Shown piece after piece: positions 53,005 through 64,000 of a stretch of DNA of 64,000 nucleotides. The position numbers and the translations under genes were made by a program. Positions within the stretch are counted from its first letter, which is position 1. Every line of letters starts with the position of its first letter. This stretch comes from Oscillospiraceae bacterium (GTDB lineage Bacteria > Bacillota > Clostridia > Oscillospirales > Oscillospiraceae). The notes beneath the pieces are model-generated. The model saw nothing but the letters and a program-made list of their open reading frames with translations. It searched no databases and had not been told where the DNA came from. The DNA is taken from assembly GCA_902761635.1 (NCBI GenBank), contig CACWLG010000002.1, positions 62,001 to 126,000 of the forward strand, in the 5' to 3' direction.

Positions 53005-53753
53005 GACACATCACTCACTTCTATGATTTGTTTGTTTTTCAGGGTCAGCTTGATCGCTTTTATTTCCACGCTGATCTCCGCCACGGTTTTCCGCAACAGA
53101 TCGGCGGACAATTGCTCCATTGGCGCGGCCTCGCGGAAGATTCTCCGCAGGCGCTCCGTTTCATATTCGTTGTTGTCGATCAACTCGTATTCCGCTTCGG
53201 CCAGGGCTTTTATCAGCTCGGCGGCGCGATCCTCGTCTATGGGTTGCTGGCCCAATGTGGCGTTGAGCGCTCTTTGCGTGCGGAATCGTTTTGTTTGGTC
53301 AGGGTCAGGTGGCACAGGAGATTGCAGGGCATCCGGATTGCGGATCAGCCGATTTATCGCGGCCAGCACACTGGCTTCAACTGTGTCGCTAACGCGACCG
53401 CCGCCAAGGATGCGGATCATACGCTGTGCGGGCGTCTGCCGTTTTGCATGACTCCGTATATTGCGCTGGCGCTGAACTGTGCTGAAGAGTTCCTCAGAGA
53501 TAATTCCCGGATACAGCGCGTCCCCTGAATACCGTTGATCCTGAAGGATACGGTCGATCATGTTTTTGTTCCAAGTCGCTGTTTTGTTATATTGGGTCAT
53601 CTGTCTTGTGTTCAGTTCTTTGGCAATATCACCGAGAGAGGCTCCCATGTTATACATCGTAAAGATCCAGAGCACGCAGTCGGATTCCTTTGTGTTGATT
53701 TGGACCGCTCCGTCTGATATTTCATACCCGAAGGGAATCTTTCGATTTTCCAT
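53001..53753 (-). CDS. Recombinase-domain protein lacking the catalytic resolvase domain
   Basis: 250 residues. It begins directly in the recombinase domain (IPFGYEISDGAVQINTKESD, MGASLGDIAKELNTRQMTQY, ILQDQRYSGDALYPGIISEE) and has a C-terminal helical region, but no catalytic Ser domain and no zinc ribbon. Between two full recombinases in an overlapping operon it is probably a DNA-binding accessory subunit rather than a broken gene: the frame is clean, and start and stop overlap both neighbours. Confidence 0.88.
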   Translation of the reverse strand: MENRKIPFGYEISDGAVQINTKESDCVLWIFTMYNMGASLGDIAKELNTRQMTQYNKTATWNKNMIDRILQDQRYSGDALYPGIISEELFSTVQRQRNIRSHAKRQTPAQRMIRILGGGRVSDTVEASVLAAINRLIRNPDALQSPVPPDPDQTKRFRTQRALNATLGQQPIDEDRAAELIKALAEAEYELIDNNEYETERLRRIFREAAPMEQLSADLLRKTVAEISVEIKAIKLTLKNKQIIEVSDVS

Positions 53754-55351
53754 TACCGTTTCATCCTCTCTATTCTTTCATTTAGCCGAAGTCCGTTTTT
53801 CATTTGAAAGCTGATGTGCTCGGCATCCTCCACGATAACCCTGCCTACCAGGATATCGAATAGATCACCGTCGAAGGCCGCTATGAAATCAGGGCCAGCG
53901 GATAGATCATCTATCAGTTCCTGCGTCTGCCGTACCGTATTATCTCCCGATGTCTCCATGATACGGTTCTTTTCCTGCTTTGCCTTACGGAGCTGCTCTG
54001 AGATAGCATTGCTGCGAGATATGAAAAGATCAGAATCAACGAGCCCCTGCTGTTTCAGCATGGTAAGAAGTTGATTCTGATTGGTGAGATCCGCTATTCT
54101 TTTGTTCAACTCGATCACTTCGAGACTCCAAAGCATCCTGCGGCTCTTGACCTCCAGATAGGTGGAAATCATCTTTGACAGAATCGGCTCGCCATGATGC
54201 TTCAGTTTATAATAAAGCCGGCAGAAAGCGTCCTCGATGGCCTCCGTGGAAACGGAAGGCATGTCGCAGGCATTGCTGTTTTCATACCGGCTGTTGCAAG
54301 TCCATATTTCAATGTTTCGCGGCTTCCGACGTCTGTATGTCGCGCCACAGCAGCCGCATACGATTTTCCTGTGGAGAAAATGATCCGTATGTGATTCCTG
54401 CCGGGAAACCCTTCTGCGTTTCGAGAGCGCCTGCGCCTTTTCAAAGGTTTCCGGTTCGATAATGGAGGGATTGCTTCCCTCTACATAGTACTTGGGCTTT
54501 TCTCCGTGGTTTCTGGTTTTCTTGTGGGGGAAGGTATCTGTTGTCAGCCATTTTGCCAGCAGTGCGTTTCCTCCATAGCGCTCATTTGATAAGATGTAAT
54601 AAACTGTGGAGCTTTTCCACTCCGCCACATCCGCTCGGGTGGGTGCTTGATTCTGGCGAAGCACCTCAGCGATTTCCTTTCGGCTCATGCCGGATAGATA
54701 CCATGTATATATCTTCCTGACAATATCTGCCTCGGTTTTTTCAATCACCAGTCTGTTCCCCTCAAGCCGAAACCCATACGGTGCCTTGCAGGTGTTGAAC
54801 TCCCCACTCTCCATGCGCTTCTGATAGCTCCAGCGCATGTTGCTGCCGATGGATTCGCTTTCCTTTTGTGCGAGGGACGCCATGACCGCCGTGATCATTT
54901 CGCTGGACATGACTGCGGTATCGATGTTCTCTTTCTCGAAGGCCACGCTGACGCCAATGGCCCGCAGTTCCCGGATGGCCTCCAGGCAGTCCTTTGTGTT
55001 GCGGGCGAAACGGGAGATGGATTTTGTTAGGACGCGGTCGATCAGCCCTCGGCGGCAGTCCGCCATCAGGCGCTGGAAATCGTCGCGCTTCTCCGCCGAG
55101 GTGCCGCTGATCCCTTCGTCGGCGTACACATCCACCAGCTTCCAGTCGCTATGAGCGGCGATCATATCCGTGTAATAGCGGTTTTGTGCGGCATAGGAAT
55201 TTAGCTGTTCATCCGAAGCGGTGCTGACACGGCAGTATGCGGCGACGCGGAGAATAACAGGCTCCGTTTTCTCGTTGGCAGGGATAGTGATAACCCGGCG
55301 TTCACCCTGCTGGATGGCAAGGTTTCCGTTGATATTCAGCATCTTTTCCAT
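53753..55351 (-). CDS. Large serine recombinase (first in the array)
   Basis: 532 residues from ATG 55351 behind GGGAGGTGCGGCC. Resolvase domain: VAAYCRVSTASDEQLNSYAA, YADEGISGTSAEKRDDFQRL, LTKSISRFARNTKDCLEAI. Recombinase domain: CKAPYGFRLEGNRLVIEKTE and YYILSNERYGGNALLAKW. Zinc ribbon: CGCCGATYRRRKP with CDMPS. Then a helical end. Full length and apparently active. It cuts and rejoins DNA at short att sites to insert or excise the element. Confidence 0.95.
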   Translation of the reverse strand: MEKMLNINGNLAIQQGERRVITIPANEKTEPVILRVAAYCRVSTASDEQLNSYAAQNRYYTDMIAAHSDWKLVDVYADEGISGTSAEKRDDFQRLMADCRRGLIDRVLTKSISRFARNTKDCLEAIRELRAIGVSVAFEKENIDTAVMSSEMITAVMASLAQKESESIGSNMRWSYQKRMESGEFNTCKAPYGFRLEGNRLVIEKTEADIVRKIYTWYLSGMSRKEIAEVLRQNQAPTRADVAEWKSSTVYYILSNERYGGNALLAKWLTTDTFPHKKTRNHGEKPKYYVEGSNPSIIEPETFEKAQALSKRRRVSRQESHTDHFLHRKIVCGCCGATYRRRKPRNIEIWTCNSRYENSNACDMPSVSTEAIEDAFCRLYYKLKHHGEPILSKMISTYLEVKSRRMLWSLEVIELNKRIADLTNQNQLLTMLKQQGLVDSDLFISRSNAISEQLRKAKQEKNRIMETSGDNTVRQTQELIDDLSAGPDFIAAFDGDLFDILVGRVIVEDAEHISFQMKNGLRLNERIERMKR

Positions 55352-55423
55352 GGCCGCACCTCCCTTCGCAGCAACAAACAGTACCACAGTTTTTCGGAAA
55401 TAGCTATCAAAAAATGCGTGAAA

Positions 55424-55567
55424 TCAGAGAGAAATAATCAGGTCTGCCTTGGTTTCCGCCGCTATCCTGCGGGCAATCTTCTCGGCCTCATTTCTTGTAA
55501 AGAGACCCTGCTCCATCAAGCCGCGGAGCAGCACGATTACGCCGCAATAGTCAATTCTTGTGTTCAT
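55424..55567 (-). CDS. Small protein at the head of the recombinase operon
   Basis: 47 residues: starts MNTRIDYCGVIVLLRGLMEQ and has GLFTRNEAEKIARRIAAETK, a helix-loop-helix form. CGGAGAATCAAT before the ATG is a proper ribosome site. It lies 72 bases upstream of the first recombinase gene. Short proteins with this GLxTxxEAxxIA pattern are what one would expect for an element-encoded accessory factor, perhaps an excisionase-like helper; that role is a guess. Confidence 0.6.
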   Translation of the reverse strand: MNTRIDYCGVIVLLRGLMEQGLFTRNEAEKIARRIAAETKADLIISL

Positions 55568-55585
55568 ATTGATTCTCCGTGTCTA

Positions 55586-55621
55586 AAAAGGGATGCCCGG
55601 TTTTTGATGCCGGACATCCCT
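55586..55621 (-). terminator. Hairpin upstream of the recombinase operon
   Basis: On the minus strand AGGGATGTCCGG pairs with CCGGGCATCCCT and TTTTTAGAC follows. It would stop read-through from the sigma-like gene into the recombinases. The stretch 55622-55978 is G+C-rich and has no gene I can support. Confidence 0.82.
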
Positions 55622-55978
55622 CAATCTATATTTTGAGATTTTCCGTTGCCTGTATTCGACACTACTTCCCCAGGCGTGGGCGGTCAGCTAAACTGCGGCG
55701 GGCGCCGCACTCCGGGACTCTCACCCCTCCGAGGATCTCTCCGAGCTGCTCCCTTTGCGTAAAGCTGAGGCTGAGCAGGGGTACCATTATAGGCAGAGGA
55801 GGTCTTTGCGAGACGGCCTGCCGGGGCCGCTTTTGGATGGGCTGAACCGCTGGGCACCTTGTTGCCGTTCATTTGATGCGGGATCGCTGTCCCGCACAGG
55901 TGGTCCTGGCGTACCCTCCGCATCGCTCGCTTCTCTGCTGAAGTTATTTAGCTGCCGGATTTGAACTTGTCAAGGAGC

Positions 55979-56007
55979 AGTGAGGGGAAAAGAAAAATCC
56001 CCTCACT
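55979..56007. terminator. Hairpin after the sigma-like gene
   Basis: AGTGAGGGGA (55979-55988) is perfectly inverted at 55998-56007; the loop aaagaaaaa gives a T-rich loop on the minus strand but no T-run follows the stem. Confidence 0.55.
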
Positions 56008-56044
56008 ACTTATCCGAGTTCAGAGAGCATGTGAGCAAAAAAAT

Positions 56045-56461
56045 TTACCGTTCGAATAAAATTTGTAGCTTTCGCAGAATTTGGCGCAGCCTATAACTGA
56101 CAGTTGTTTGTGGGACACCCTCGTGTTTGGAAACCTCGCGCTCTGAAAGGCCGTCGTAATAGATTGCCTGGATCAGCTTTCGATCCTCCTCCGGCAAGAG
56201 AGCTATGCACCGCCGCAGCTTGACAGCCATCATTTCCGCGATAACCCGATCCTCAAAGTTTGATGTCGTTTTATCCGGGAACAGCTCCGCTCCCAGCATA
56301 TCGTCTGTGTCGAACGCATCGTAAGAGAAAACGTGGTTTCGTATGTCCTTTTCCTCTAACGTCCTGCTGTGCCGCTCCATGGACCAGAATGCTTTATAAA
56401 CCTCCTCCGAGACTTCAACGCGAGCCTCGGGTACTCGTATGTAGTATCTCTTGTCTGCCAT
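56045..56461 (-). CDS. Sigma-70 region 4-like regulator of the element
   Basis: 138 residues from ATG 56461 after AGGAGG. The end is a sigma region 4 helix-turn-helix: LRRCIALLPEEDRKLIQAIY, DGLSEREVSKHEGVPQTTVS, YRLRQILRKLQ. The first part (YYIRVPEARVEVSEEVYKAF, WSMERHSRTLEEKD) is typical of small sigma-like proteins carried by conjugative and integrative elements of clostridia. It likely activates element genes. An 11-bp inverted repeat lies directly in its leader. Confidence 0.85.
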   Translation of the reverse strand: MADKRYYIRVPEARVEVSEEVYKAFWSMERHSRTLEEKDIRNHVFSYDAFDTDDMLGAELFPDKTTSNFEDRVIAEMMAVKLRRCIALLPEEDRKLIQAIYYDGLSEREVSKHEGVPQTTVSYRLRQILRKLQILFER

Positions 56462-56479
56462 ATGGCAGTCCTCCTGTCT

Positions 56480-56510
56480 TTTGAGATTTTTAGAATGGGA
56501 AAATCTCAAA
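56480..56510. promoter_or_regulatory. Perfect 11-bp inverted repeat between divergent reading frames
   Basis: TTTGAGATTTT (56480-56490) and AAAATCTCAAA (56500-56510), nine-base spacer. It lies 18 bases before the sigma-like gene on one side and just before a ribosome site on the other. It may be an operator or an RNA hairpin. Confidence 0.55.
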
Positions 56511-56529
56511 AAAACGGAGGGGACCGGCA

Positions 56530-56598
56530 ATGAAACAGAAAAAGAGGAACCAAGACATTATTCAGACAATCTTGATTCCTCGGATTATTCCCTTTTGA
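56530..56598 (+). CDS. Possible 22-residue peptide gene
   Basis: ATG 56530 follows GGAGGGG with a seven-base spacer. The peptide begins MKQKKRNQDIIQ and ends ILIPRIIPF, basic then hydrophobic. It could be a leader peptide or tiny toxin; it could also be chance, since the same bases lie opposite the leader of the sigma-like gene. Confidence 0.35.
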   Translation: MKQKKRNQDIIQTILIPRIIPF

Positions 56599-56706
56599 TG
56601 TTCTTATAGTGAACGAAGAGCGACCTTTCAGGATACACTGCTTACTGGACAAGAAAAGCAGTATTTGTTCCCTTAGAGGCAAGTCAACGTTTCACTTTCT
56701 TTCTAT

Positions 56707-56754
56707 TGATTGTTTATCTGCTGCGCCAGATGATTGTTTACCTGCTGCGCCAGA
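56707..56754 (+). repeat. Two 24-bp direct repeats ahead of the XRE gene
   Basis: TGATTGTTTATCTGCTGCGC-CAGA and TGATTGTTTACCTGCTGCGC-CAGA lie head to tail with one difference, 88 bases before the XRE start. They may be operator half-sites or recombination sites. Confidence 0.6.
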
Positions 56755-56841
56755 AAGTGAACCGCAGTAGATATTTGGTGACATTAGAGGTGATTTATTA
56801 ACCTGCGTATTGAACTTAGAATGTAGCAGAGGTGATCTGCG

Positions 56842-57171
56842 ATGGATGATACGCTTGAGAAGTTTGGTACAGCAGTTAAGACAAAACGTGAAGAACTTGG
56901 CCTTACTCAGGTGGAATTGGGTGAAAAGCTCGGGATTAGCTACCGCACAATCATGAAGGTCGAAAACTTTCAGTCAAATTGCAAATTTGAAACGATTGCC
57001 CTGTTAGCCCAGGGATTGAACATAAGCCTTGATGCTGTTATTTTTTCCACGGCACTGAATGCTGATCAGATTCCAAAGAGCGCTGCAGATTTCTTTGCGG
57101 GGATGTCTCCTGAGAAAGCTTCCAATTACGTTGCAATTCTGGAGGCAATAAAGAGCATGACAGAGTCATAA
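56842..57171 (+). CDS. XRE-family repressor-like regulator
   Basis: 109 residues. Cro/CI helix-turn-helix at 8-65: FGTAVKTKREELGLTQVELG, KLGISYRTIMKVENFQSN, FETIALLAQGLNISLDAVIF. The C-terminal 40 residues (SAADFFAGMSPEKASNYVA) are helical and may dimerise. AGAGGTGAT before the ATG. It reads opposite to the recombinases and sigma-like gene, as expected for the element's repressor, and has its own strong terminator. Confidence 0.88.
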   Translation: MDDTLEKFGTAVKTKREELGLTQVELGEKLGISYRTIMKVENFQSNCKFETIALLAQGLNISLDAVIFSTALNADQIPKSAADFFAGMSPEKASNYVAILEAIKSMTES

Positions 57172-57335: not shown

Positions 57336-58220
57336 TCAGGAGAAGGCTCCAAAAGGCGGATATCCGCAAGAATTACCATAACAAAATTGTTTGCATAACG
57401 GGAGAAGGAAAAAGCGCCCAATACTGGACGCTTTTCCTTCTCTGGTACGTACTGTTTGACGGTCTGAACGATCTGCGCCGAAGCCGATGTTGCAGAGATT
57501 GGAAAAGCGGTTCTTCCGTATCCGCGCGGCCTTATGCGCTTCCATCTTTTGCGCCGCTTCCTGTTCGGTCTGCTCCTCCACGGCAAAGGAGCGCAGAATG
57601 GTCATAGCGCCAAGCCGCTCCTGCAAAAAGACGCGCAGCCTGCCGTCCTGCTCCTGGACAGATTTGTGCAGGCGCTTGAGCACCCGACGAAACAGCCAGG
57701 TCAGCAGCGTGAGCAGCGCCCCGCCGGGTATGACGATCAGGGCGAAGCGCCGGTCAAGCACGACCAGCATCACGAGAGCGCAGACCAACTTAACGCTCAT
57801 CCCCGCGAGGCCGGGTAAGATTTCCACCATGCTGTTTGCCACGACCACGGCATCGTTGGTCAGGCGGTTGAGCCATTCGGCGGAGTGGACGGCGCTGACA
57901 GCGGCGTAGTCCTTGCGCAGAAGCTGACGGAAAAGCCTCCGCTTGAAGGTGTTTTCCAGACCTGATTTGCCAAGCTCGTTGAGCCAACGGATCACGGCCC
58001 GCAGGGCGAGCTGTCCCGTTATCTGCAGGGCGGCGAAAACCGCGTTTTGCCAAAAGGCCGCGCCATTGCTTATAACCGCCGCGTCCACGATATTTCGGAG
58101 CAAAAGCGCGTAAAGCACCCCGGAAGCCCCAAACAGAGCCTCCGCGAGTGCCAACAGCGCAATGATTCCCTTTTTCCGGCCTGTCACGGTATAGAGCCAG
58201 GCGAGCGTTTTATCTCTCAT
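57336..58220 (-). pseudogene. ABC exporter, membrane half only; ATPase half lost
   Basis: From ATG 58220 the protein has the six-span ABC exporter membrane domain: KGIIALLALAEALFGASGVL, YALLLRNIVDAAVISNG, NAVFAALQITGQLALRAV, RLTNDAVVVANSMVEILPG, SVKLVCALVMLVVLDRRFA, and GAMTILRSFAVEEQTEQEA. Homology stops at RIRKNRFSNLCNIGFGA (about 57485); the frame then runs through unrelated sequence to a stop at 57336. Walker A and B regions are absent, so it cannot transport. The start overlaps the stop of the peptidase-like gene (ATGA). Confidence 0.85.
57401..57442. other. Imperfect inverted repeat at the element border
   Basis: GAGAAGGAAAAAGCG and CGCTTTTCCTTCTC flank 12 bases. It lies some 40 bases from the point where ABC transporter homology ends and may be the terminator of an element transcript or part of the border. 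The remainder of 57218-57484 shows no gene. Confidence 0.5.
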
Positions 58221-58650
58221 CGTTTCCGCTGAATCCACTGGGGTATGCGCCGAACCTTCAGCAGCGCGGCTCTCGCCGGGAAGAAATCGCACCACAGGTG
58301 GGCATACAGCTTCATTTGCGGATCGCTCATGCTGATCTCCCTGCCGTCCCGGATCACGGCCTTCAGCACGCCGAGGATGTGCCGGTCAGTGACGCCAGTT
58401 TCTCTGTTCCAGCGGTTGCCCCCGCAGATCACATAGTCGTGTTCCCGCACCTCCAGTACCCGGTGCAGGACATATTGACCGCTGTCGCGCCTGTAAAAAG
58501 CAATGTCATACTTCTTCGTCTGCCCTCCGGCGGCTCAATGACCAGAAGATTCCTTCCCTCGCGGATAAGGGGTAGCATACTGTCGCCCACATTGGTATAG
58601 ATCAGCCGCCCGTCACGAGCGAGGATTTCCCCGAAGCTGGATCTATTCAT
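58217..58650 (-). pseudogene. S24/S26 signal-peptidase-like gene with a frameshift
   Basis: From ATG 58650 the first part reads GRLIYTNVGDSMLPLIREGR and LLVIEPPEG, the Ser-containing start of a LexA/signal-peptidase fold (SMxP). Near 58535 the frame shifts by one; the other frame continues KKYDIAFYRRDSGQYVLHRV, LEVREHDYVICGGNRWNRE to the stop at 58217-58219, with the VLHRV stretch expected around the second catalytic region. Both parts are needed for one domain. It overlaps pqqD-like and ABC genes at its two ends. It may process the peptide encoded at 60798-60911. Confidence 0.78.
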
Positions 58651-58903
58651 CCAGCGCGCCGATTTTGCGAAGCTCTGTCAGCGCCTTTTCCACATCGGCG
58701 GCAATCACGGCCTCCGGCGCGTCAAAGCGGGCGCACAGGGCTTTGATGATTTCGGCCTCTGTCGTGTCTTTTTTTAAAAGCTCCAGAATGGCGCCCAGGG
58801 TTTTGTTGCCCCGCACAAGACCCGCAAACGCCGCCTTGCCCGTCGGCACAAGCAGACTGTCCTGGGGCGAGTTGTGGATGACGAATTTCTTGCTCAGTTT
58901 CAT
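58643..58903 (-). CDS. PqqD-family protein (peptide-binding RRE type)
   Basis: 86 residues, typical for PqqD. LSKKFVIHNSPQDSLLVPTG gives the first strands, then GNKTLGAILELLKKDTTEAE and IIKALCARFDAPEAVIAADV-EKAL the helices. PqqD-type domains bind leader peptides of ribosomally made modified peptides. GAGGGATAAGAGC precedes ATG 58903. It lies 15 bases after the nucleotidyltransferase-family gene and overlaps the peptidase-like gene by eight bases. Confidence 0.9.
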   Translation of the reverse strand: MKLSKKFVIHNSPQDSLLVPTGKAAFAGLVRGNKTLGAILELLKKDTTEAEIIKALCARFDAPEAVIAADVEKALTELRKIGALDE

Positions 58904-58918
58904 GCTCTTATCCCTCTT

Positions 58919-60091
58919 TCATACGTGATCATCAGAAGCGCGGGCAGCGTTTTTCTCTGCCTTTTTCAGCGCTTTCAGTTCCGCTTTCAGCCGCCCGCTG
59001 AACAGGCGAAGGAACACCCGGTAAAACGGCAGGAGCGGAAGAAAAAACCTGTGCCTGTAGAAGAACGGAAATTCACAGGAGAGGTTCCGGTAGTTCCAGC
59101 TGTTTTTATTGAGCGGCTCCAGAAAGCGCTCCAGGGCATAGCGGAGCTTCCCATAGCCGAAATCGGACAGCCGCCGCTGGACCGCAAGCTCTCTGGACCC
59201 GTATACACCCGAATCCAGGATGGTTTGCAGCGTCTCGTCCTCCGCCGCTGTCAGGGCCTCACCGGAGAACAGATGCTGGGCCAGACTGCGGTTCGTTTCT
59301 TCAAATTCCGCAATGCCCAGCTTCTCCGTTTCCGCTTTCACATAGGCCATATCGAGTTCTTCCTTTTGCAGAAACACATAGGTATCCAGCAGGGAGCGCA
59401 GGCCCGTGCCCTTGTCCGTATAGTGCTTATACGCGTGCGCGGTCATGTAGATATAAAAATCCTCCGGGCTGAAATGCTTTTCATACCCCTCGCCGAGGAG
59501 CCTCGCTTCCACATCCCGGTAGTATTCATACAGCTTCTCATGCAGACCGGGCGCGACCAGGAGCAGGTGCATCTCAAAATTGCTGACCGGTTCCTTGAAA
59601 TAGACGTCATGATGCGCGATGCCGAACTCCTCCATGCGAAAGCCGAGCCCCTCCATGATGCGCCGCACGTCGTCGGCCCGTTTCGCGTCGAACAGGATGT
59701 CGTGGTCGGACATTTCGCGCATACCGAAGCGCGGGTAGTAGTCCTGCAGGATCGTTCCCTTGAGCGGCATGTGCCAGATCCCCGCCGCGTCCATCTCCGC
59801 GAAGATCGCCTCCATGTCGGCGTCCATCAGGGCAATCTTGCGCATGGCCTTTGCCTTTGCCTGCGTGAAGGCGGGATCGTGGACCCCGGCGGATTCCAGC
59901 GCATACGCCACCGCCGCCGTCAGCATATGGCGCTCGGCAACGGTATAGAGCGCCGGTAGATCGAGGGCCTCGACGCGGTCCTTCTCCGGGACGCTTTCCT
60001 TCACGGCGCAGGAGACGAGGTAGATCAAATCATCCAGTGCCGCCCGCTTTTGTTCTCTTGGCATACTCTTTTCACCACATTCCGGTTTCAT
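58919..60091 (-). CDS. Nucleotidyltransferase-family protein (NTP_transf_5 type)
   Basis: About 390 residues. WHMPLKGTILQDYYPRFGMR and EMSDHDILFDAKRADDVRRI hold the family's KG and (S/D)xDxDxL nucleotidyltransferase motif; HHDVYFKEPVSNFEMHLLL supplies a further acidic position; the rest is helical. Such proteins are found in lasso-peptide and similar clusters beside PqqD-type genes. ATG 60091 and ATG 60064 both have only weak ribosome sites; the frame is open to 60175. Confidence 0.86.
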   Translation of the reverse strand: MKPECGEKSMPREQKRAALDDLIYLVSCAVKESVPEKDRVEALDLPALYTVAERHMLTAAVAYALESAGVHDPAFTQAKAKAMRKIALMDADMEAIFAEMDAAGIWHMPLKGTILQDYYPRFGMREMSDHDILFDAKRADDVRRIMEGLGFRMEEFGIAHHDVYFKEPVSNFEMHLLLVAPGLHEKLYEYYRDVEARLLGEGYEKHFSPEDFYIYMTAHAYKHYTDKGTGLRSLLDTYVFLQKEELDMAYVKAETEKLGIAEFEETNRSLAQHLFSGEALTAAEDETLQTILDSGVYGSRELAVQRRLSDFGYGKLRYALERFLEPLNKNSWNYRNLSCEFPFFYRHRFFLPLLPFYRVFLRLFSGRLKAELKALKKAEKNAARASDDHV

Positions 60092-60226
60092 AACAATTCT
60101 TTTCTCACGTCCGGACAGCAAAGCAAGGAATACCGCCGAAGCGGCACTCCCTGCAAAGCCGCTGGACTGATTCACAGACGCTTTCGATCTGTGTATCCAG
60201 CCCGGCGAGGCAACAGACGCCCCGCC

Positions 60227-60775
60227 TTATTTTTTCACAAAGGGCAGGACGACAGGCGGCGCCATCTGCCCGGCGGGCTGATCGACGGGCGCTTCGCCTG
60301 CGTTCGAGTCAGCGAATTCGAAGCCGGCGGCTGTGGCAAAGCGTTCCGCCTCGCTGCCCGCGGCGCCGTAGACGGTCACGTTTTCGCAGCCCTCCAGAGC
60401 CAGATCGTCCACCTTCAATACCGTGGCCGGAATAACGATTTCCCGAAGACTCTTGCTGTCCGCAAAGGCTCTTTTTCCAATCGAAACGACGTTTTCGGAA
60501 ATCTCCACGCGCTGAGCCGCAATGCCCTCAAAGGCGCTTTCCTCGATCAGCGTCAGAGACGCGGGCAGGGCAAGGCTCTCGCTGCCGTCGCCTCCGTTCG
60601 GCGCCGCGCTCCGGAATACCTCGTTTGCGCGCAGCCGCATTTCATCCGGCGTCAGCATCACGACGCTCATACCGTCGGCGATCAAGACCTCCACCTGCAC
60701 GCCGTCCTCCGCATGTGCCGCGGGGGCGAGGCACAAAAGCAGGACAAGAACGAGAAGTATACTGATTTTTTTCAT
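60227..60775 (-). CDS. Small secreted BspA-type LRR protein
   Basis: 182 residues. Signal peptide ISILLVLVLLLCLAPAAHA. The body is LRR_5 repeats: LPASLTLIEESAFEGI, NVVSIGKRAFADSKSLREI, PATVLKVDDLALEGCENVTV, closing with YGAAGSEAERFATAAGFEF, then a Pro-rich tail. No anchor motif. GGAGAGG precedes ATG 60775, 22 bases after the 37-residue peptide gene, so they are co-transcribed. A hairpin at 60204-60226 lies between it and the nucleotidyltransferase-family gene. Confidence 0.8.
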   Translation of the reverse strand: MKKISILLVLVLLLCLAPAAHAEDGVQVEVLIADGMSVVMLTPDEMRLRANEVFRSAAPNGGDGSESLALPASLTLIEESAFEGIAAQRVEISENVVSIGKRAFADSKSLREIVIPATVLKVDDLALEGCENVTVYGAAGSEAERFATAAGFEFADSNAGEAPVDQPAGQMAPPVVLPFVKK

Positions 60776-60797
60776 GATTGCGTTCTTCCTCTCCTTA

Positions 60798-60911
60798 TCA
60801 GCCGTTATTTCCAATGTTTTCCCAGTTTGTAAGACCATCGGCGCTGGTGGTGATGATATCTTCTGTTTCAAAAACGGTGATCTCCATTTTCAGCTCTTCA
60901 TACTGTTCCAT
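60798..60911 (-). CDS. 37-residue peptide with EDIITTS motif, candidate RiPP precursor
   Basis: AAAGGAG seven bases before ATG 60911 is an excellent ribosome site. The peptide starts MEQYEELKMEITVFETEDII and ends TTSADGLTNWENIGNNG. It splits into an acidic leader-like part and a short Thr/Ser/Asn/Gly-rich end. It lies 30 bases after the giant secreted protein gene and upstream of genes for a nucleotidyltransferase-family protein, a PqqD-type binder, a peptidase-like protein and an ABC exporter, which is the arrangement expected of a precursor. Its modification is unknown. Confidence 0.75.
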   Translation of the reverse strand: MEQYEELKMEITVFETEDIITTSADGLTNWENIGNNG

Positions 60912-60941: not shown

Positions 60942-63900
60942 TCATGCGTGGTTGTAGGCGTATGCGGCCTGCCAGTATTCATACAGGGCGGCCAGCGCGT
61001 TCTGCTCATCCGCGGCCGGGTTGCTCTTGCTCAGGACGGTATAGACATAGGACAGCGGCGAGGCGGTGAAGTCAAAGACGGTCGTGCTGCCGATCTTCAT
61101 GACCACGCGGTGCGGTACCCACAGATTGTTCGCGGCGATATTGCCGATCTCCACGCGGTAGGCCGTCCCGCTGACCGTGGGCGTGACGGCATTTCCGTTG
61201 ACGGTCATGCTCACGCTGCCCGCCGGGGTATTCTTCAGCCTGATCTCCACGATGAGGGAGGTATCGGCGTTCAGCAGCAGTCTGTACTGCGCGGCCTGGA
61301 CATACGCGGAATCCATGGTAGTCAGCGTAAATTTCTTATCTTCCGAACCGGACTTTGCCGCGCTCACGTCCACGGTGCCGGAATAATCCAGCGCGGCGTA
61401 TTTGCCGCCGACAGTCCAGCCGTGTACGCGCGCGAGGTAGGGCTGGATGAAGTGACCGTAGGCGCGGGTCGCGTTCACCAGTTTCTGCGCTCCGCCGGTA
61501 TACGTGCCTTCGGCCAGGCTGTCGAGATACTGCTTGACGGAATAGGTATCGGTCAGGGTCTTCGTCGCTCCTTCCTTCTTATAGGTGAAGGTCGCGGTGA
61601 TGGTGTCCGCCATCTGGTAGGCGTAAACATTGCAGGTAAAGTATTTGCCCTGAGTATCCGTTTTTATATCACTGTACGGGATCACTTGATTCTCGCGGTT
61701 ATTCATGGTGAAGGTCATCGCCGCGTCGGTGTAATCAATGTCTGTGCCTGTCGGCAGCGCCATATAGTAACGCAGGCCCAGGACACCGCCCAGCTCCAGG
61801 GCATAGCCGGTGATGACCGGCTCCGTCAGGGCGGCAATTGTCACCGTGACGCAGGCGGGGGTCGAGTCGCTGTGATCTGCGTCGCCCACGACCTTGTACC
61901 AGACGTAGTAGGTTCCCGCGTCGGTGGCTGTGGGAAGGGATGTATTATCAAAAGTATATGCGTCGCTGGCCGGTTCGGCATTCGTCGTGGTGACGGCATA
62001 TTTCATCGTGCCGCCTGTTGCAGAACCGGCATCGACCAACGCCTGCGCGGAGCCGGTATAGGTCAGCGTCTTGGCCGTCGGCGCCGTCGTGACGATCGCA
62101 ACAGGCTTCACCGCAAGACTGGTGAGACTTGCAAAGGCTGCCTTACTGTAGGTCACCGAGCCGTCCGTGTTCTCCGTTCCGCCGGTCAGTCCGTTTACAC
62201 TCACCCCGGCGCCCAGCGTCAGGTTAATGTCATCCGAAACAAGATTGGAATTGCCCTTTTCCACGGTCAGCTTGCCGCCGTAAACCCCAATCGTTCCGCT
62301 CAATGTGGCGTTTGCGTCAGAAATCGTCTGGCCGTTGAAATCCGCATAATTGTTGAGGCTTGAAAGCGTCTTGGTGCCCTTGACAATCAGGTTCGAGGTT
62401 TCCTCCGCGCCCTGTTCGGGATAGATTTCCAGCGAGCTTCCGATGTGGTAGATTCCGGCATATATCGTCACCGTAGTATCCTTGCCCAGAATCAGCTTCA
62501 CATCATTTCCCATATAAATCAACGCGCCGATTTCAATATTGCCTTTGGCATAGTAGATGCAGCCTTCCTTCAGGAGCATGATGTCGTTCGGATTGCTCAC
62601 CAGAGGAATATACTGGTTGGTCGTAGCCAGTACAGGCGAATTGTTGGTGGTTTTTACATAAGTAATGGAGTTCGTCTGACCGTTGATCTTGAAGGACTTG
62701 CTGATGGTCTTATCGCCGACGGTGGCGGATGCCGTATAGGTGCCCACATCTGTTGCGGCGGTCACAGTGTTGCCGTTCTGATCCTTGAAGCTGACGGCTC
62801 CAACCGTCACCTTGTTGTCCGGGAAATCGGCACTCTTTTGAACCGTAGCCGCCGTCAGATCGACCGGCTCGCCGTCATAAGTCTTGTCACTGGGCATATC
62901 TTTCAACTCCGCCGTGTAGGTGTTCGGAGTCGGCAGGCTGTCTGTCACAGTCGCCTTCGCACCATTCGCCGCGTCCACCGCCACGGTATAGGTGATCTCC
63001 TTGAAGGTCGCACTGACGGTAACGTTAGACGCGGGCATGGTGAACTTGTCGTTCGTCACGGCCACAGTGTTTTCGCTGGCGTCCTTGACTGTGACGGTGT
63101 CCAACTGATAGCCCTCAGACGGATTGTAGGTTAGAGTAATCTCGTCGCCGATGTTAGCTGTTGTTACAACAGAAGTTCCTTTTTTCGCCTCGACCGAGCC
63201 GTGCGACGCAGAATTGACTGTCACGGTGTAGTCGATGGGGGTAAAGGTACCGGTCACGGTGACGGGATAGTCGGGCATGGTGAATGCCCCGTCAGTAACC
63301 GTCACGGTCGTGCTGCTGTCACCGGTCTTTGTGACGCTGTAGGAATCGAAGTTATAGCCATCCGCCGGGGTATTGCCCAGGGTGATGGTATCGCCACAGT
63401 CGGCGGTCGTAACGTCGGCATTGTCTTTCTTCGCCGTCAGCGTGCCGCCCGTGGCGGGCTGGGTCAGCGTGATTGCCGAATTGATCTTCTTGAAGGTCGC
63501 GCTGACGGTGACGTTGGCCTCGGGCATGACGAAGCTCTCGTTGTTTGTAACAGTAACGTCGCTGTCGCCGTTCTTGACCGTGAGCGTGTCCAACTCAAAG
63601 CCTGTTTCCGGGGTAATGGTGGGCGTGACCGTCGCGCCAACCGTCGCGCCTGTTGCCCCGCTGACGGTGCCGTTGTTCGCCGTATTGTAAGTAATGCAGT
63701 TCATGCCGTAGGTCACGGATGCAGTCGTTCCCCCAAGCGTGATGCTGGCCTTGTGGAAACCTGCTGTGGTGGGCGGAGTTTCCGTCTCATCAGCAGAGCC
63801 AGTTTTATATTTGACAATCGGAGCAGCAATGGCATCGGTAGGCGTTACATTCACGACTGCTGCGCCACCGTCCGTTGTGGGTGCACTGATGGTCAGCTTT

Positions 63901-64000
63901 GCCTCGTAATCCTGCCCGTCAGTGTGATGGGTTTTGTCCGTACACTTTGCTATGATGGTATCATTCTCAATCGTTGTCGTGCCAACGCTGTACTCGATAT
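60942..64000 (-). CDS. Giant secreted/surface repeat protein (5' end beyond window)
   Basis: The frame is open from the right edge to a stop at 60942, at least 1019 residues. From the amino side come several InlB-type/bacterial repeat units (GYQLDTVTVKDASENTVAV, FTMPASNVTVSATFKEI, FTMPDYPVTVTGTFTPI), an MBG-like domain (DKTYDGEPVDLTAATV), a right-handed repeat-like part, another MBG-like domain (KTLTYTGSAQALVDAGSA), and a closing module (DTYSVKQYLDSLAEG, LVNATRAYGHFIQPYL) common at the end of gut Firmicutes surface proteins. No sortase motif. It is upstream of the peptide gene in the same operon. Confidence 0.88.
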   Translation of the reverse strand, partial: IEYSVGTTTIENDTIIAKCTDKTHHTDGQDYEAKLTISAPTTDGGAAVVNVTPTDAIAAPIVKYKTGSADETETPPTTAGFHKASITLGGTTASVTYGMNCITYNTANNGTVSGATGATVGATVTPTITPETGFELDTLTVKNGDSDVTVTNNESFVMPEANVTVSATFKKINSAITLTQPATGGTLTAKKDNADVTTADCGDTITLGNTPADGYNFDSYSVTKTGDSSTTVTVTDGAFTMPDYPVTVTGTFTPIDYTVTVNSASHGSVEAKKGTSVVTTANIGDEITLTYNPSEGYQLDTVTVKDASENTVAVTNDKFTMPASNVTVSATFKEITYTVAVDAANGAKATVTDSLPTPNTYTAELKDMPSDKTYDGEPVDLTAATVQKSADFPDNKVTVGAVSFKDQNGNTVTAATDVGTYTASATVGDKTISKSFKINGQTNSITYVKTTNNSPVLATTNQYIPLVSNPNDIMLLKEGCIYYAKGNIEIGALIYMGNDVKLILGKDTTVTIYAGIYHIGSSLEIYPEQGAEETSNLIVKGTKTLSSLNNYADFNGQTISDANATLSGTIGVYGGKLTVEKGNSNLVSDDINLTLGAGVSVNGLTGGTENTDGSVTYSKAAFASLTSLAVKPVAIVTTAPTAKTLTYTGSAQALVDAGSATGGTMKYAVTTTNAEPASDAYTFDNTSLPTATDAGTYYVWYKVVGDADHSDSTPACVTVTIAALTEPVITGYALELGGVLGLRYYMALPTGTDIDYTDAAMTFTMNNRENQVIPYSDIKTDTQGKYFTCNVYAYQMADTITATFTYKKEGATKTLTDTYSVKQYLDSLAEGTYTGGAQKLVNATRAYGHFIQPYLARVHGWTVGGKYAALDYSGTVDVSAAKSGSEDKKFTLTTMDSAYVQAAQYRLLLNADTSLIVEIRLKNTPAGSVSMTVNGNAVTPTVSGTAYRVEIGNIAANNLWVPHRVVMKIGSTTVFDFTASPLSYVYTVLSKSNPAADEQNALAALYEYWQAAYAYNHA

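What the first reader, a model, noticed from the sequence alone, without database searches (positions are those of the whole stretch)
57485..60911. EDIITTS peptide with PqqD-type, nucleotidyltransferase-like, peptidase-like and ABC genes: possible undescribed peptide-modification system
Seen: a 37-codon gene with an excellent ribosome site, followed on the same strand by a secreted LRR gene, an NTP_transf_5-type gene, a PqqD-type gene, an S24/S26-like gene and an ABC exporter membrane domain, with overlaps or gaps of 8-22 bases around most of them. Known: PqqD domains bind leader peptides; NTP_transf_5 proteins occur in some lasso-peptide clusters. Inference: the peptide is the substrate and its TTSADGLTNW end the core. 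There is no cyclase, radical SAM or dehydratase, so the chemistry, perhaps nucleotidyl transfer or simple export, would be new.
Basis: partly seen in the sequence, partly recalled or inferred. Interest (0 to 1): 0.78.

Follow-up and report, generated by a model that had tools for sequence, protein, structure and literature searches.

The report
Phosphopeptide precursor paired with surface protein
A tiny gene in a bacterium whose relatives live in animal guts probably makes a peptide that is trimmed and tagged with phosphate, and its relatives mostly sit right behind genes for big secreted proteins, which suggests that such peptides are made as partners of surface proteins.

Summary
In detail: a 37-codon gene (60911-60798, minus strand) lies in an operon with NTP_transf_5, PqqD, S24/S26-like (frame broken) and ABC (truncated) genes. 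Kinase, RRE (PqqD), SipW-like peptidase, exporter, NTase, in that order, is the core of linear polyphosphorylated peptides (LPPs), published in May 2026 from Bacilli, role unknown. So the enzymology is known in kind. The precursor is a variant: 6 residues, not 9, between P and F; Ser at predicted core position 7, not 3. New here: in sampled Clostridia most precursors lie away from the kinase, and most examined ones directly follow a gene for a large secreted protein without visible anchor; one genome has about 20; cores co-diverge with their partner's C-terminus; rSAM-linked precursors carry Cys. I read the peptide as a phosphorylated partner, perhaps an anchor, of surface proteins. Phosphorylation, binding and anchoring are inferred.

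The parts
60942..63998 (-). Large surface-type protein, C-terminal 1018 aa (start beyond the window, signal peptide not seen): InlB-B type repeats (Flg_new_2) and a C-terminal domain (called BIGC here) with two Ig/FnIII-like beta-sandwiches
   Evidence: BIGC aligned with 14 further sequences; AlphaFold mean pLDDT 92.5
60798..60911 (-). 37-aa precursor peptide MEQYEELKMEITVFETEDIITTSADGLTNWENIGNNG (30 nt behind the large gene)
60864..60911 (-). Predicted leader MEQYEELKMEITVFET (RRE-binding Y-x-x-L/P; cut after F-E-T by analogy with LppA)
   Evidence: alignment A4; PMC13381572 sections 6, 8, 11; inference
60801..60863 (-). Predicted core EDIITTSADGLTNWENIGNNG; invariant Ser codon at 60845-60843 is the predicted phosphosite
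   Evidence: Ser in 123 of 124 aligned peptides; LppK specificity from PMC13381572; inference
60227..60775 (-). Small secreted LRR_5 protein in the 'stalk' position, C-terminus VVLPFVKK
58919..60175 (-). NTP_transf_5 (LppN-type) nucleotidyltransferase; likely start ATG at 60091
   Evidence: Pfam PF14907 1.2e-40; start read
58643..58903 (-). PqqD-type RRE (LppB-type)
   Evidence: Pfam PF05402 4.1e-11; A2
58217..58650 (-). SipW-like (S24/S26) leader peptidase, frame broken into two pieces
57474..58220 (-). ABC exporter membrane domain (LppD-type), truncated before the ATPase
53753..55387 (-). Large serine recombinase of a mobile element downstream of the truncated ABC gene
   Evidence: Pfam Resolvase/Recombinase

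Best explanation
The gene encodes an LPP-type RiPP precursor. Steps 1-4 follow the published LPP system: (1) the PqqD-type RRE binds the leader through Y-x-x-L/P; (2) the HprK-like kinase, encoded elsewhere in this genome, phosphorylates the invariant Ser of ...ITTS; (3) the SipW-like Ser/His/Asp peptidase cuts after F-E-T; (4) the NTase may cap the phosphate and the ABC exporter secretes the product. (5) New: in Clostridia the precursor is the dedicated partner of the large secreted protein encoded just upstream. The core recognises that protein's C-terminal region, and the peptide helps to hold or display the otherwise unanchored protein at the cell surface. Shown by sequence: family, cassette, co-occurrence, pairing, co-divergence. 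Inferred: phosphorylation site, cleavage site, binding, anchoring. The window copy is decaying (broken peptidase, truncated exporter) and would depend on enzymes encoded elsewhere.
For: Cassette: 80 kinase loci kept of 587 confirmed. On the kinase's strand: PqqD within 3 kb in 66 of 80, S24 within 3 kb in 59, ABC within 4.5 kb in 39, NTP5 within 6 kb in 39, peptide within 4 kb in 29; all five enzymes in 23, of which 19 in order K-B-S-D-N (several contigs are short). That order is lppKBSDN. Peptide: Ser 123 of 124, D 122 of 130, Y 120 of 128, F 120 of 131 among 132 distinct peptides. Peptidase: Ser 75 of 75 and His 75 of 75, 39 columns apart as in LppS; Asp 56 of 74, 26 columns on (LppS 25). 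Genomes: of 292 Clostridia, 36 have the peptide and 77 the kinase; 35 of 36 have both, Fisher p=1.3e-22. Pairing: 68 of 82 peptides have an ORF of at least 180 aa ending within -25 to 60 nt of their start; 54 of the 61 complete ones have a signal-peptide-like N-terminus, against 51 of 135 other ORFs, p=8e-12. In this genome all 5 peptides found follow a large gene. Co-divergence of tail and partner C-terminal 60 aa: Mantel r 0.89, 0.51, 0.94, 0.39 in four groups; with the leader controlled for 0.89, 0.48, 0.83, 0.28. No C-terminal membrane segment in 68 of 68 partners.
Against: Spacing differs from LPP (Px6F not Px9F; Ser at core position 7 not 3). By profile the closest solved RREs are lasso TbiB1 and TfuB1, with LppB third. 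Scanned kinases and peptidases do not reach Pfam cut-offs. G292 has 4 peptides but no kinase, PqqD or NTP_transf_5. 14 of 82 peptides have no close upstream ORF by my criterion (for some of these my start call was poor). No direct similarity between tail and partner. The window's own peptide tail and stalk tail do not match (rank 13 of 13). Co-divergence could come from duplication or exchange of neighbouring DNA, and the paralogues are not independent; in the mixed group the leader also tracks the partner (0.31 with the tail controlled for). The peptides were collected with profiles that favour the conserved residues. LppN had no detectable activity in the published host.
Confidence: 0.62

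Rival explanations
1. An ordinary LPP-type RiPP (secreted signal or antimicrobial). Position behind a secreted-protein gene only reflects use of its promoter and joint duplication, not a working partnership.
For: Same cassette as LPP. No direct tail-partner similarity. Co-duplication gives co-divergence without binding. Multi-copy variable cores are common in antimicrobial RiPPs (recalled).
Against: The upstream genes are repeatedly large and signal-peptide-like in genomes of many families. In the three groups from one genome, one genus and one genome, the tail tracks the partner C-terminus while the leader, which lies between them on the DNA, does not once the tail is controlled for (0.10, 0.09, -0.11).
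Confidence: 0.25
2. The peptide is bound by, or silences, its protein partner (chaperone, inhibitor or immunity partner of a secreted effector) rather than anchoring it.
For: Two-gene units of a large variable secreted protein and a small downstream gene look like effector-partner pairs; tail and C-terminus co-diverge.
Against: A leader bound by an RRE and an exporter-linked cassette are not expected for an immunity protein. Ten partners scanned with Pfam show LRR, InlB-type repeats, weak beta-propeller matches or nothing, no toxin domain.
Confidence: 0.15
3. A lasso peptide whose cyclase and B2 peptidase lie elsewhere in the genome.
For: S/A/G after the conserved block and acidic residues downstream could make a ring in some cores; the RRE profile is nearest to lasso RREs; Asn_synthase matches exist in 57 of 60 relatives.
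Against: No Transglut_core3 (B2) match in this genome. None of the listed Asn_synthase places is on a contig with a PqqD match (its weakest matches were not listed). Tails as short as 6 residues without a fixed Asp/Glu position cannot form a lasso.
Confidence: 0.03
4. A decayed relic in this genome: no product is made from this locus.
For: Peptidase gene frame-broken, exporter gene truncated, no kinase match in the window.
Against: Peptide, large-protein, NTase and RRE frames are open as far as seen; kinase, S24-like and further RRE and NTase genes exist elsewhere in the genome. A frame break in a draft assembly may be a sequence error.
Confidence: 0.3

Closest known systems
Linear polyphosphorylated peptides (LPP; lppA-K-B-S-D-N of Paenibacillus alginolyticus, PMC13381572; abstract, passages and sections 6, 7, 8, 11, 12, 16 read)
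   Same: Same five enzyme types in the same order; no cyclase; precursor with YxxP-like leader, F-E-T before the predicted cut and a conserved Ser after it; variable C-termini; SipW-like peptidase with the same Ser-His spacing
   Different: P-to-F spacing 6 not 9; Ser at core position 7 not 3; precursors mostly away from the kinase and about 20 in one genome (paper: one to three per cluster); secreted-protein gene directly upstream; rSAM subset; Clostridia, a word absent from the paper's main text (supplements not seen)
Paeninodin/pseudomycoidin-type lasso peptides (kinase and NTP_transf_5 tailoring; PMC7533575, passages)
   Same: HprK-like kinase, discrete PqqD RRE, NTP_transf_5, ABC exporter
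   Different: No macrolactam cyclase and no B2 transglutaminase-like peptidase found with the cassette
Discrete lasso-like RREs without lasso enzymes (RRE-Finder, PMC7470986, passages)
   Same: That paper says almost 8,000 proteins match its discrete lasso RRE model best and only about 4,000 co-occur with leader peptidase and cyclase; it offers uncharacterised RiPP classes as one reading. The RREs here may belong to that unexplained set
   Different: Here the partners are kinase, SipW-like peptidase and precursor; my link to that set is inference
Radical SAM RiPPs (sactipeptides/ranthipeptides)
   Same: In a subset a CxxxCxxC radical SAM gene lies beside the peptide and the peptide has Cys (8 of 8)
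   Different: Same leader, and PqqD and often the kinase nearby; the window operon has no rSAM

Membership tests
LPP RiPPs (Popov et al. 2026) | Core genes K, B (RRE), S (SipW-like), D (ABC), N (NTase) without cyclase | tested here: met
   Relatives: 23 of 80 loci have all five, 19 of them in order KBSDN. Window: N, B, broken S, truncated D; K elsewhere in the genome
LPP RiPPs (Popov et al. 2026) | Precursor motif YxxPxVLxHQxIxFETxxS / Px9Fx[T/A] | tested here: not met
   Gapless Y-x6-E-[VI]-xx-F-[ED]-x-E-D-[VI]-I-x-x-S; P to F is 6 residues. Y, P/L, F-E-x and a later Ser are shared
LPP RiPPs (Popov et al. 2026) | Kinase-dependent Ser phosphorylation | not testable with these tools
   Only indirect: invariant Ser, kinase co-occurrence
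LPP RiPPs (Popov et al. 2026) | Leader peptidase with Ser/His/Asp triad (S29, H68, D93) | tested here: met
   In the family: Ser 75 of 75, His 75 of 75 (spacing 39), Asp 56 of 74 at 26 columns (LppS 25); an Asp at another column is in 73 of 74. Window copy broken
LPP RiPPs (Popov et al. 2026) | RRE in the LPP clade of the RRE tree | tested here: inconclusive
   PDB profile search: TbiB1 5e-8, TfuB1 6e-6, LppB 9x8z 0.005; no tree built
Lasso peptides | Macrolactam cyclase (Asn_synthase) with the cluster | tested here: not met
   No listed Asn_synthase place on a PqqD contig in 60 relatives. In 182 loci, two Asn_synthase-like ORFs: L184 on the strand opposite the peptide, L060 a 153-codon frame on the kinase's strand, neither examined further
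Lasso peptides | B2 peptidase (Transglut_core3, PF13471) | tested here: not met
   None in this genome; listed hits in relatives lie on other contigs than the PqqD matches
RRE-dependent RiPP in general | Discrete PqqD-like RRE and YxxP-type leader | tested here: met
   PF05402 above cut-off; Y 120 of 128, P/L/A at Y+3 in 124 of 131; PMC12710340 passages give W/Y/LxxP/L/I for many RREs
Radical SAM RiPP | Radical SAM maturase at the locus | tested here: not met
   None among the window operon's genes; present in the C34 paralogue and near 8 of 51 peptides

The most novel reading that the evidence does not exclude
Gut Clostridia use one LPP cassette as a general peptide-tagging machine. It matures up to about 20 different short peptides, each encoded behind and matched to its own secreted protein, and the phosphorylated (and possibly sugar- or nucleotide-capped) peptide tethers that protein to envelope polysaccharide. 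In BIGC loci a membrane-anchored stalk protein presents the same E-L-P-F-V-P-like end as some peptides, as a second docking point. This would be a new way of anchoring surface proteins and would explain what LPPs are for.
Probability: 0.25. Interest if true: 0.88.

Novelty: new variant of a known kind. Interest (0 to 1): 0.72.

Why it matters
The authors of the LPP paper state that the biological roles of LPPs remain unknown. The clostridial loci give a direct clue: precursors are paired with secreted proteins that show no anchor, and their cores co-diverge with the partners' C-termini. That turns an open question into binding and localisation tests. It also points to a RiPP machine that works in trans on many precursors, and offers one explanation for part of the many orphan lasso-like RREs.

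Tried and rejected
Lasso peptide: rejected for lack of cyclase and B2 with the cassette. Nucleotidyl transfer as sole chemistry: set aside once the kinase was found. Mimicry of the partner's C-terminus by the peptide tail: tested in four groups with three lengths of partner end each, none significant (p 0.10 to 0.98). Mimicry of the stalk tail: observed 222, permuted mean 178, sd 16, p=0.009, n=13; against random inner stretches of the same stalk proteins mean 144, sd 12, 0 of 2000. Rows dropped before that test: of 51 peptides 34 had no secreted ORF found downstream; of the other 17, two were the kinase (L034, L072), L044 and L101 were left out as wrong or short ORFs, L120 is 2231 aa; the window was added from its own coordinates. 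L060 stayed in although its C-terminus is a membrane segment. L044 was later seen to end ELPFVPFD but is not in the test. A first regular expression for peptides was too strict and was replaced by profiles. Fold of the BIGC domain: AlphaFold confident, but Foldseek gives only weak Ig/FnIII-type matches (TM at most 0.23 on the query in the 50 rows shown), so no function follows. The rSAM-Cys table: two loci count twice (L034/L072 and L035/L059 carry the same peptides; all four in the no-rSAM, no-Cys cell); the rSAM profile was built from 6 of the loci; of the 4 Cys-bearing peptides without rSAM, L103 and L106 have the Cys inside the conserved block, L136 in the tail, and in L096 it lies in a poorly called N-terminal part. 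Literature: LPP found; of the motif words only one unrelated paper came up; the 10 of 22 rows listed for RiPP plus surface protein are not about such a pairing, judged by title and abstract.


Full report
1. What is in the window. The minus strand carries, in order: the end of a large surface-type protein gene (63998-60942), a 37-codon peptide gene (60911-60798), a small secreted LRR gene (60775-60227), NTP_transf_5 (60175-58919), PqqD (58903-58643), an S24/S26-like gene in two frames (58650-58217) and the membrane half of an ABC exporter (58220 to about 57470). The exporter's ATPase half is missing, and a serine recombinase lies further downstream. The kinase query used has no match in the window. 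The genome is an unnamed draft (176 contigs, 85.8% complete, 4.7% contamination).

2. The peptide is a family. PqqD relatives (21 of 60 genomes match, own included) gave the first related peptides. An iterated profile then found 51 peptides in 102 loci and 0 among 25281 reversed small ORFs. Of the 46 with a kinase in the same locus, 43 are on the kinase's strand and 3 opposite. In alignment A4 (32 peptides) the block from Y to Ser has no gaps. Among 132 distinct peptides Ser is found in 123 of 124, D 122 of 130, Y 120 of 128, F 120 of 131 (rows without a residue at that column left out). A caveat: the peptides were collected with profiles that favour these residues. The tails after Ser are variable and as short as 6 residues.

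3. The machinery. In relatives an HprK-like kinase stands beside PqqD. Pfam sees Hpr_kinase_C in 1 of 3 kinases scanned, below its cut-off (3.7e-5). On the kinase's strand and near it: PqqD in 66 of 80, S24-like 59, ABC 39, NTP_transf_5 39, peptide 29; all five enzymes in 23, 19 of them in order kinase-PqqD-S24-ABC-NTP5 (many contigs are short, so absences are weak). In this genome the kinase is at C24:51231 beside an S24-like frame and a Wzm/Wzt-like polysaccharide exporter. PqqD matches are at C2, C13 and C34; the C13 copy lies beside a sugar transferase, a PIG-L deacetylase and a formyltransferase.

4. It is LPP-like. PMC13381572 (Nat Commun, 20 May 2026; abstract, passages and sections 6, 7, 8, 11, 12, 16 read) describes linear polyphosphorylated peptides: lppA-K-B-S-D-N, RRE binding of YxxP, LppK putting several phosphates on core Ser3, LppS (SipW-like, S29/H68/D93) cutting after F-E-T with help of the RRE, LppN without detected activity, roles unknown. 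Our cassette has the same genes and order, and our peptidase family has the Ser (75 of 75) and His (75 of 75) at the same spacing of 39 and an Asp in 56 of 74 at 26 columns (LppS 25). The precursor differs: six, not nine, residues between P and F, and the invariant Ser at the seventh, not the third, residue after F-E-x. The paper's main text does not contain Clostridi-, Lachnospir-, gut, surface, lipoprotein or radical SAM; its supplements were not seen. So this is a variant of LPP, not a strict member by its motif.

5. Precursors act in trans, in numbers. In 292 genomes sampled across the class, 36 have a peptide match (124 matches, E<=0.001) and 77 a kinase (E<=1e-30, which includes a second, more distant HprK-like group); 35 of the 36 have the kinase (Fisher p=1.3e-22). 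Related genomes are not independent, so the p-value is nominal. The exception, G292, lacks kinase, PqqD and NTP_transf_5 alike. By my tally from the two lists 7 of 124 peptide matches lie within 10 kb of the kinase; draft contigs make this a lower bound. G253 has 21 matches, two of them 15-codon fragments at contig ends, and two kinases, one with an internal stop; G073, G074 and G104 have 15, 12 and 10 matches and one, two and one kinases.

6. Most examined precursors follow a secreted-protein gene. Eighty neighbourhoods were fetched, 78 aimed at peptide matches and two at kinases (L190, L204). They were chosen by hand, mainly from genomes with many matches and from the best-scoring rest, so they are not a random sample. 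They hold 82 peptides. Of these 68 have an ORF of at least 180 aa ending between 25 nt inside and 60 nt before the peptide start; 7 of the 68 are cut by a locus edge; of the other 61, 54 have a signal-peptide-like N-terminus. The same criterion is met by 51 of 135 other ORFs in these loci, p=8e-12; the criterion is lax. Of the 14 without, several have a poorly called start. Pfam names LRR_5 in one and InlB-type repeats in two of ten partners scanned, nothing in seven. None of 68 partners has a C-terminal membrane segment; two have lipobox-like letters. SLH and wall-binding domains were looked for only in the ten Pfam-scanned partners. In this genome all five peptides found follow a large gene: window, C13, C8 (two) and C34.

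7. Core and partner co-diverge. Within three groups (17 pairs of G253; 25 of G073, G104 and G153, one genus; 7 of G074) the distance between peptide tails follows the distance between the partners' last 60 residues (Mantel r 0.89, 0.51, 0.94), more than their N-terminal part (0.59, 0.12, 0.46). The leader, which lies between them on the DNA, does not follow once the tail is controlled for (0.10, 0.09, -0.11), while the tail still does when the leader is controlled for (0.89, 0.48, 0.83). In a mixed group of 18 the plain values are 0.39 for the tail and 0.41 for the leader, so there the two are not separated. The leader is under constraint from the shared enzymes, and duplication or exchange of DNA can give the same pattern, so this supports but does not prove a physical partnership. 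Tails and partner ends show no direct similarity.

8. Two side patterns. (a) Radical SAM: all 8 peptides with a radical SAM gene within 3.5 kb have Cys after residue 18, against 4 of 43 without, p=8e-7 (details under Tried and rejected). The C34 paralogue in this genome, not in that table, fits too. This suggests that the tail is the modified core. (b) Stalk proteins: of 19 distinct small secreted ORFs found behind peptides, 9 end in ELPFV or a similar motif (L044, L058, L087, L095, L114, L118, L121, L123, L138) and 2 with a C-terminal membrane segment carry it at the mature N-terminus (L005, L060), so that it stands at the free end; 8 show neither. Some peptide tails share it (ELPFVPAE in L123). 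Matching within loci: p=0.009, n=13. The window's LRR protein ends VVLPFVKK, but its peptide does not match.

9. Mechanism. Best reading: RRE-guided phosphorylation of the invariant Ser, leader cleavage after F-E-x, possible capping by the NTase, export, and binding to the C-terminal region of the paired secreted protein, perhaps linking it to the envelope. Phosphorylation and cleavage are taken by analogy with LPP; binding and anchoring are my inference. Rivals: free-standing peptide that only shares a promoter; chaperone or inhibitor of the partner; local decay in this genome.

10. Novelty. The enzymology is a known kind, published in May 2026. The clostridial precursor form, the in-trans multiplicity, the pairing with secreted proteins and the co-divergence were not seen in print in the results (open-licence PMC papers only; for some only the top rows were listed, and only four papers were opened).

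Noticed in passing
window 53753-57171: A mobile-element stretch (large serine recombinase, sigma-like and HTH genes; G+C 0.50 against 0.57-0.61 in the operon's larger genes) lies downstream of the truncated ABC gene and may have cut it.
   Followed up: partly
L137 9488-13860 (Lachnospiraceae MAG): Three radical SAM genes in tandem downstream of a Cys-rich peptide beside kinase, PqqD and S24-like genes.
   Followed up: no
L063 7315-7797 and L136 4465-4839: Precursors with the same leader but tails of more than 90 residues (L136: Kandleria vitulina), much longer than the rest.
   Followed up: no
L057 (G000 C24:45000-52524): Kinase and S24-like frames directly beside a Wzm/Wzt-like polysaccharide exporter, in line with the capsule-locus link reported for LPP in Bacilli.
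   Followed up: partly
G073:C24, G104:C13, G153:C6 (one genus): In three genomes of one genus the PqqD lies about 2 kb from the kinase, not next to it; what lies between was not read.
   Followed up: no
G292 (L227-L230): A 97% complete genome with four peptides, three of them behind BIGC-type genes, but no kinase, PqqD or NTP_transf_5: a natural loss or an assembly gap.
   Followed up: partly
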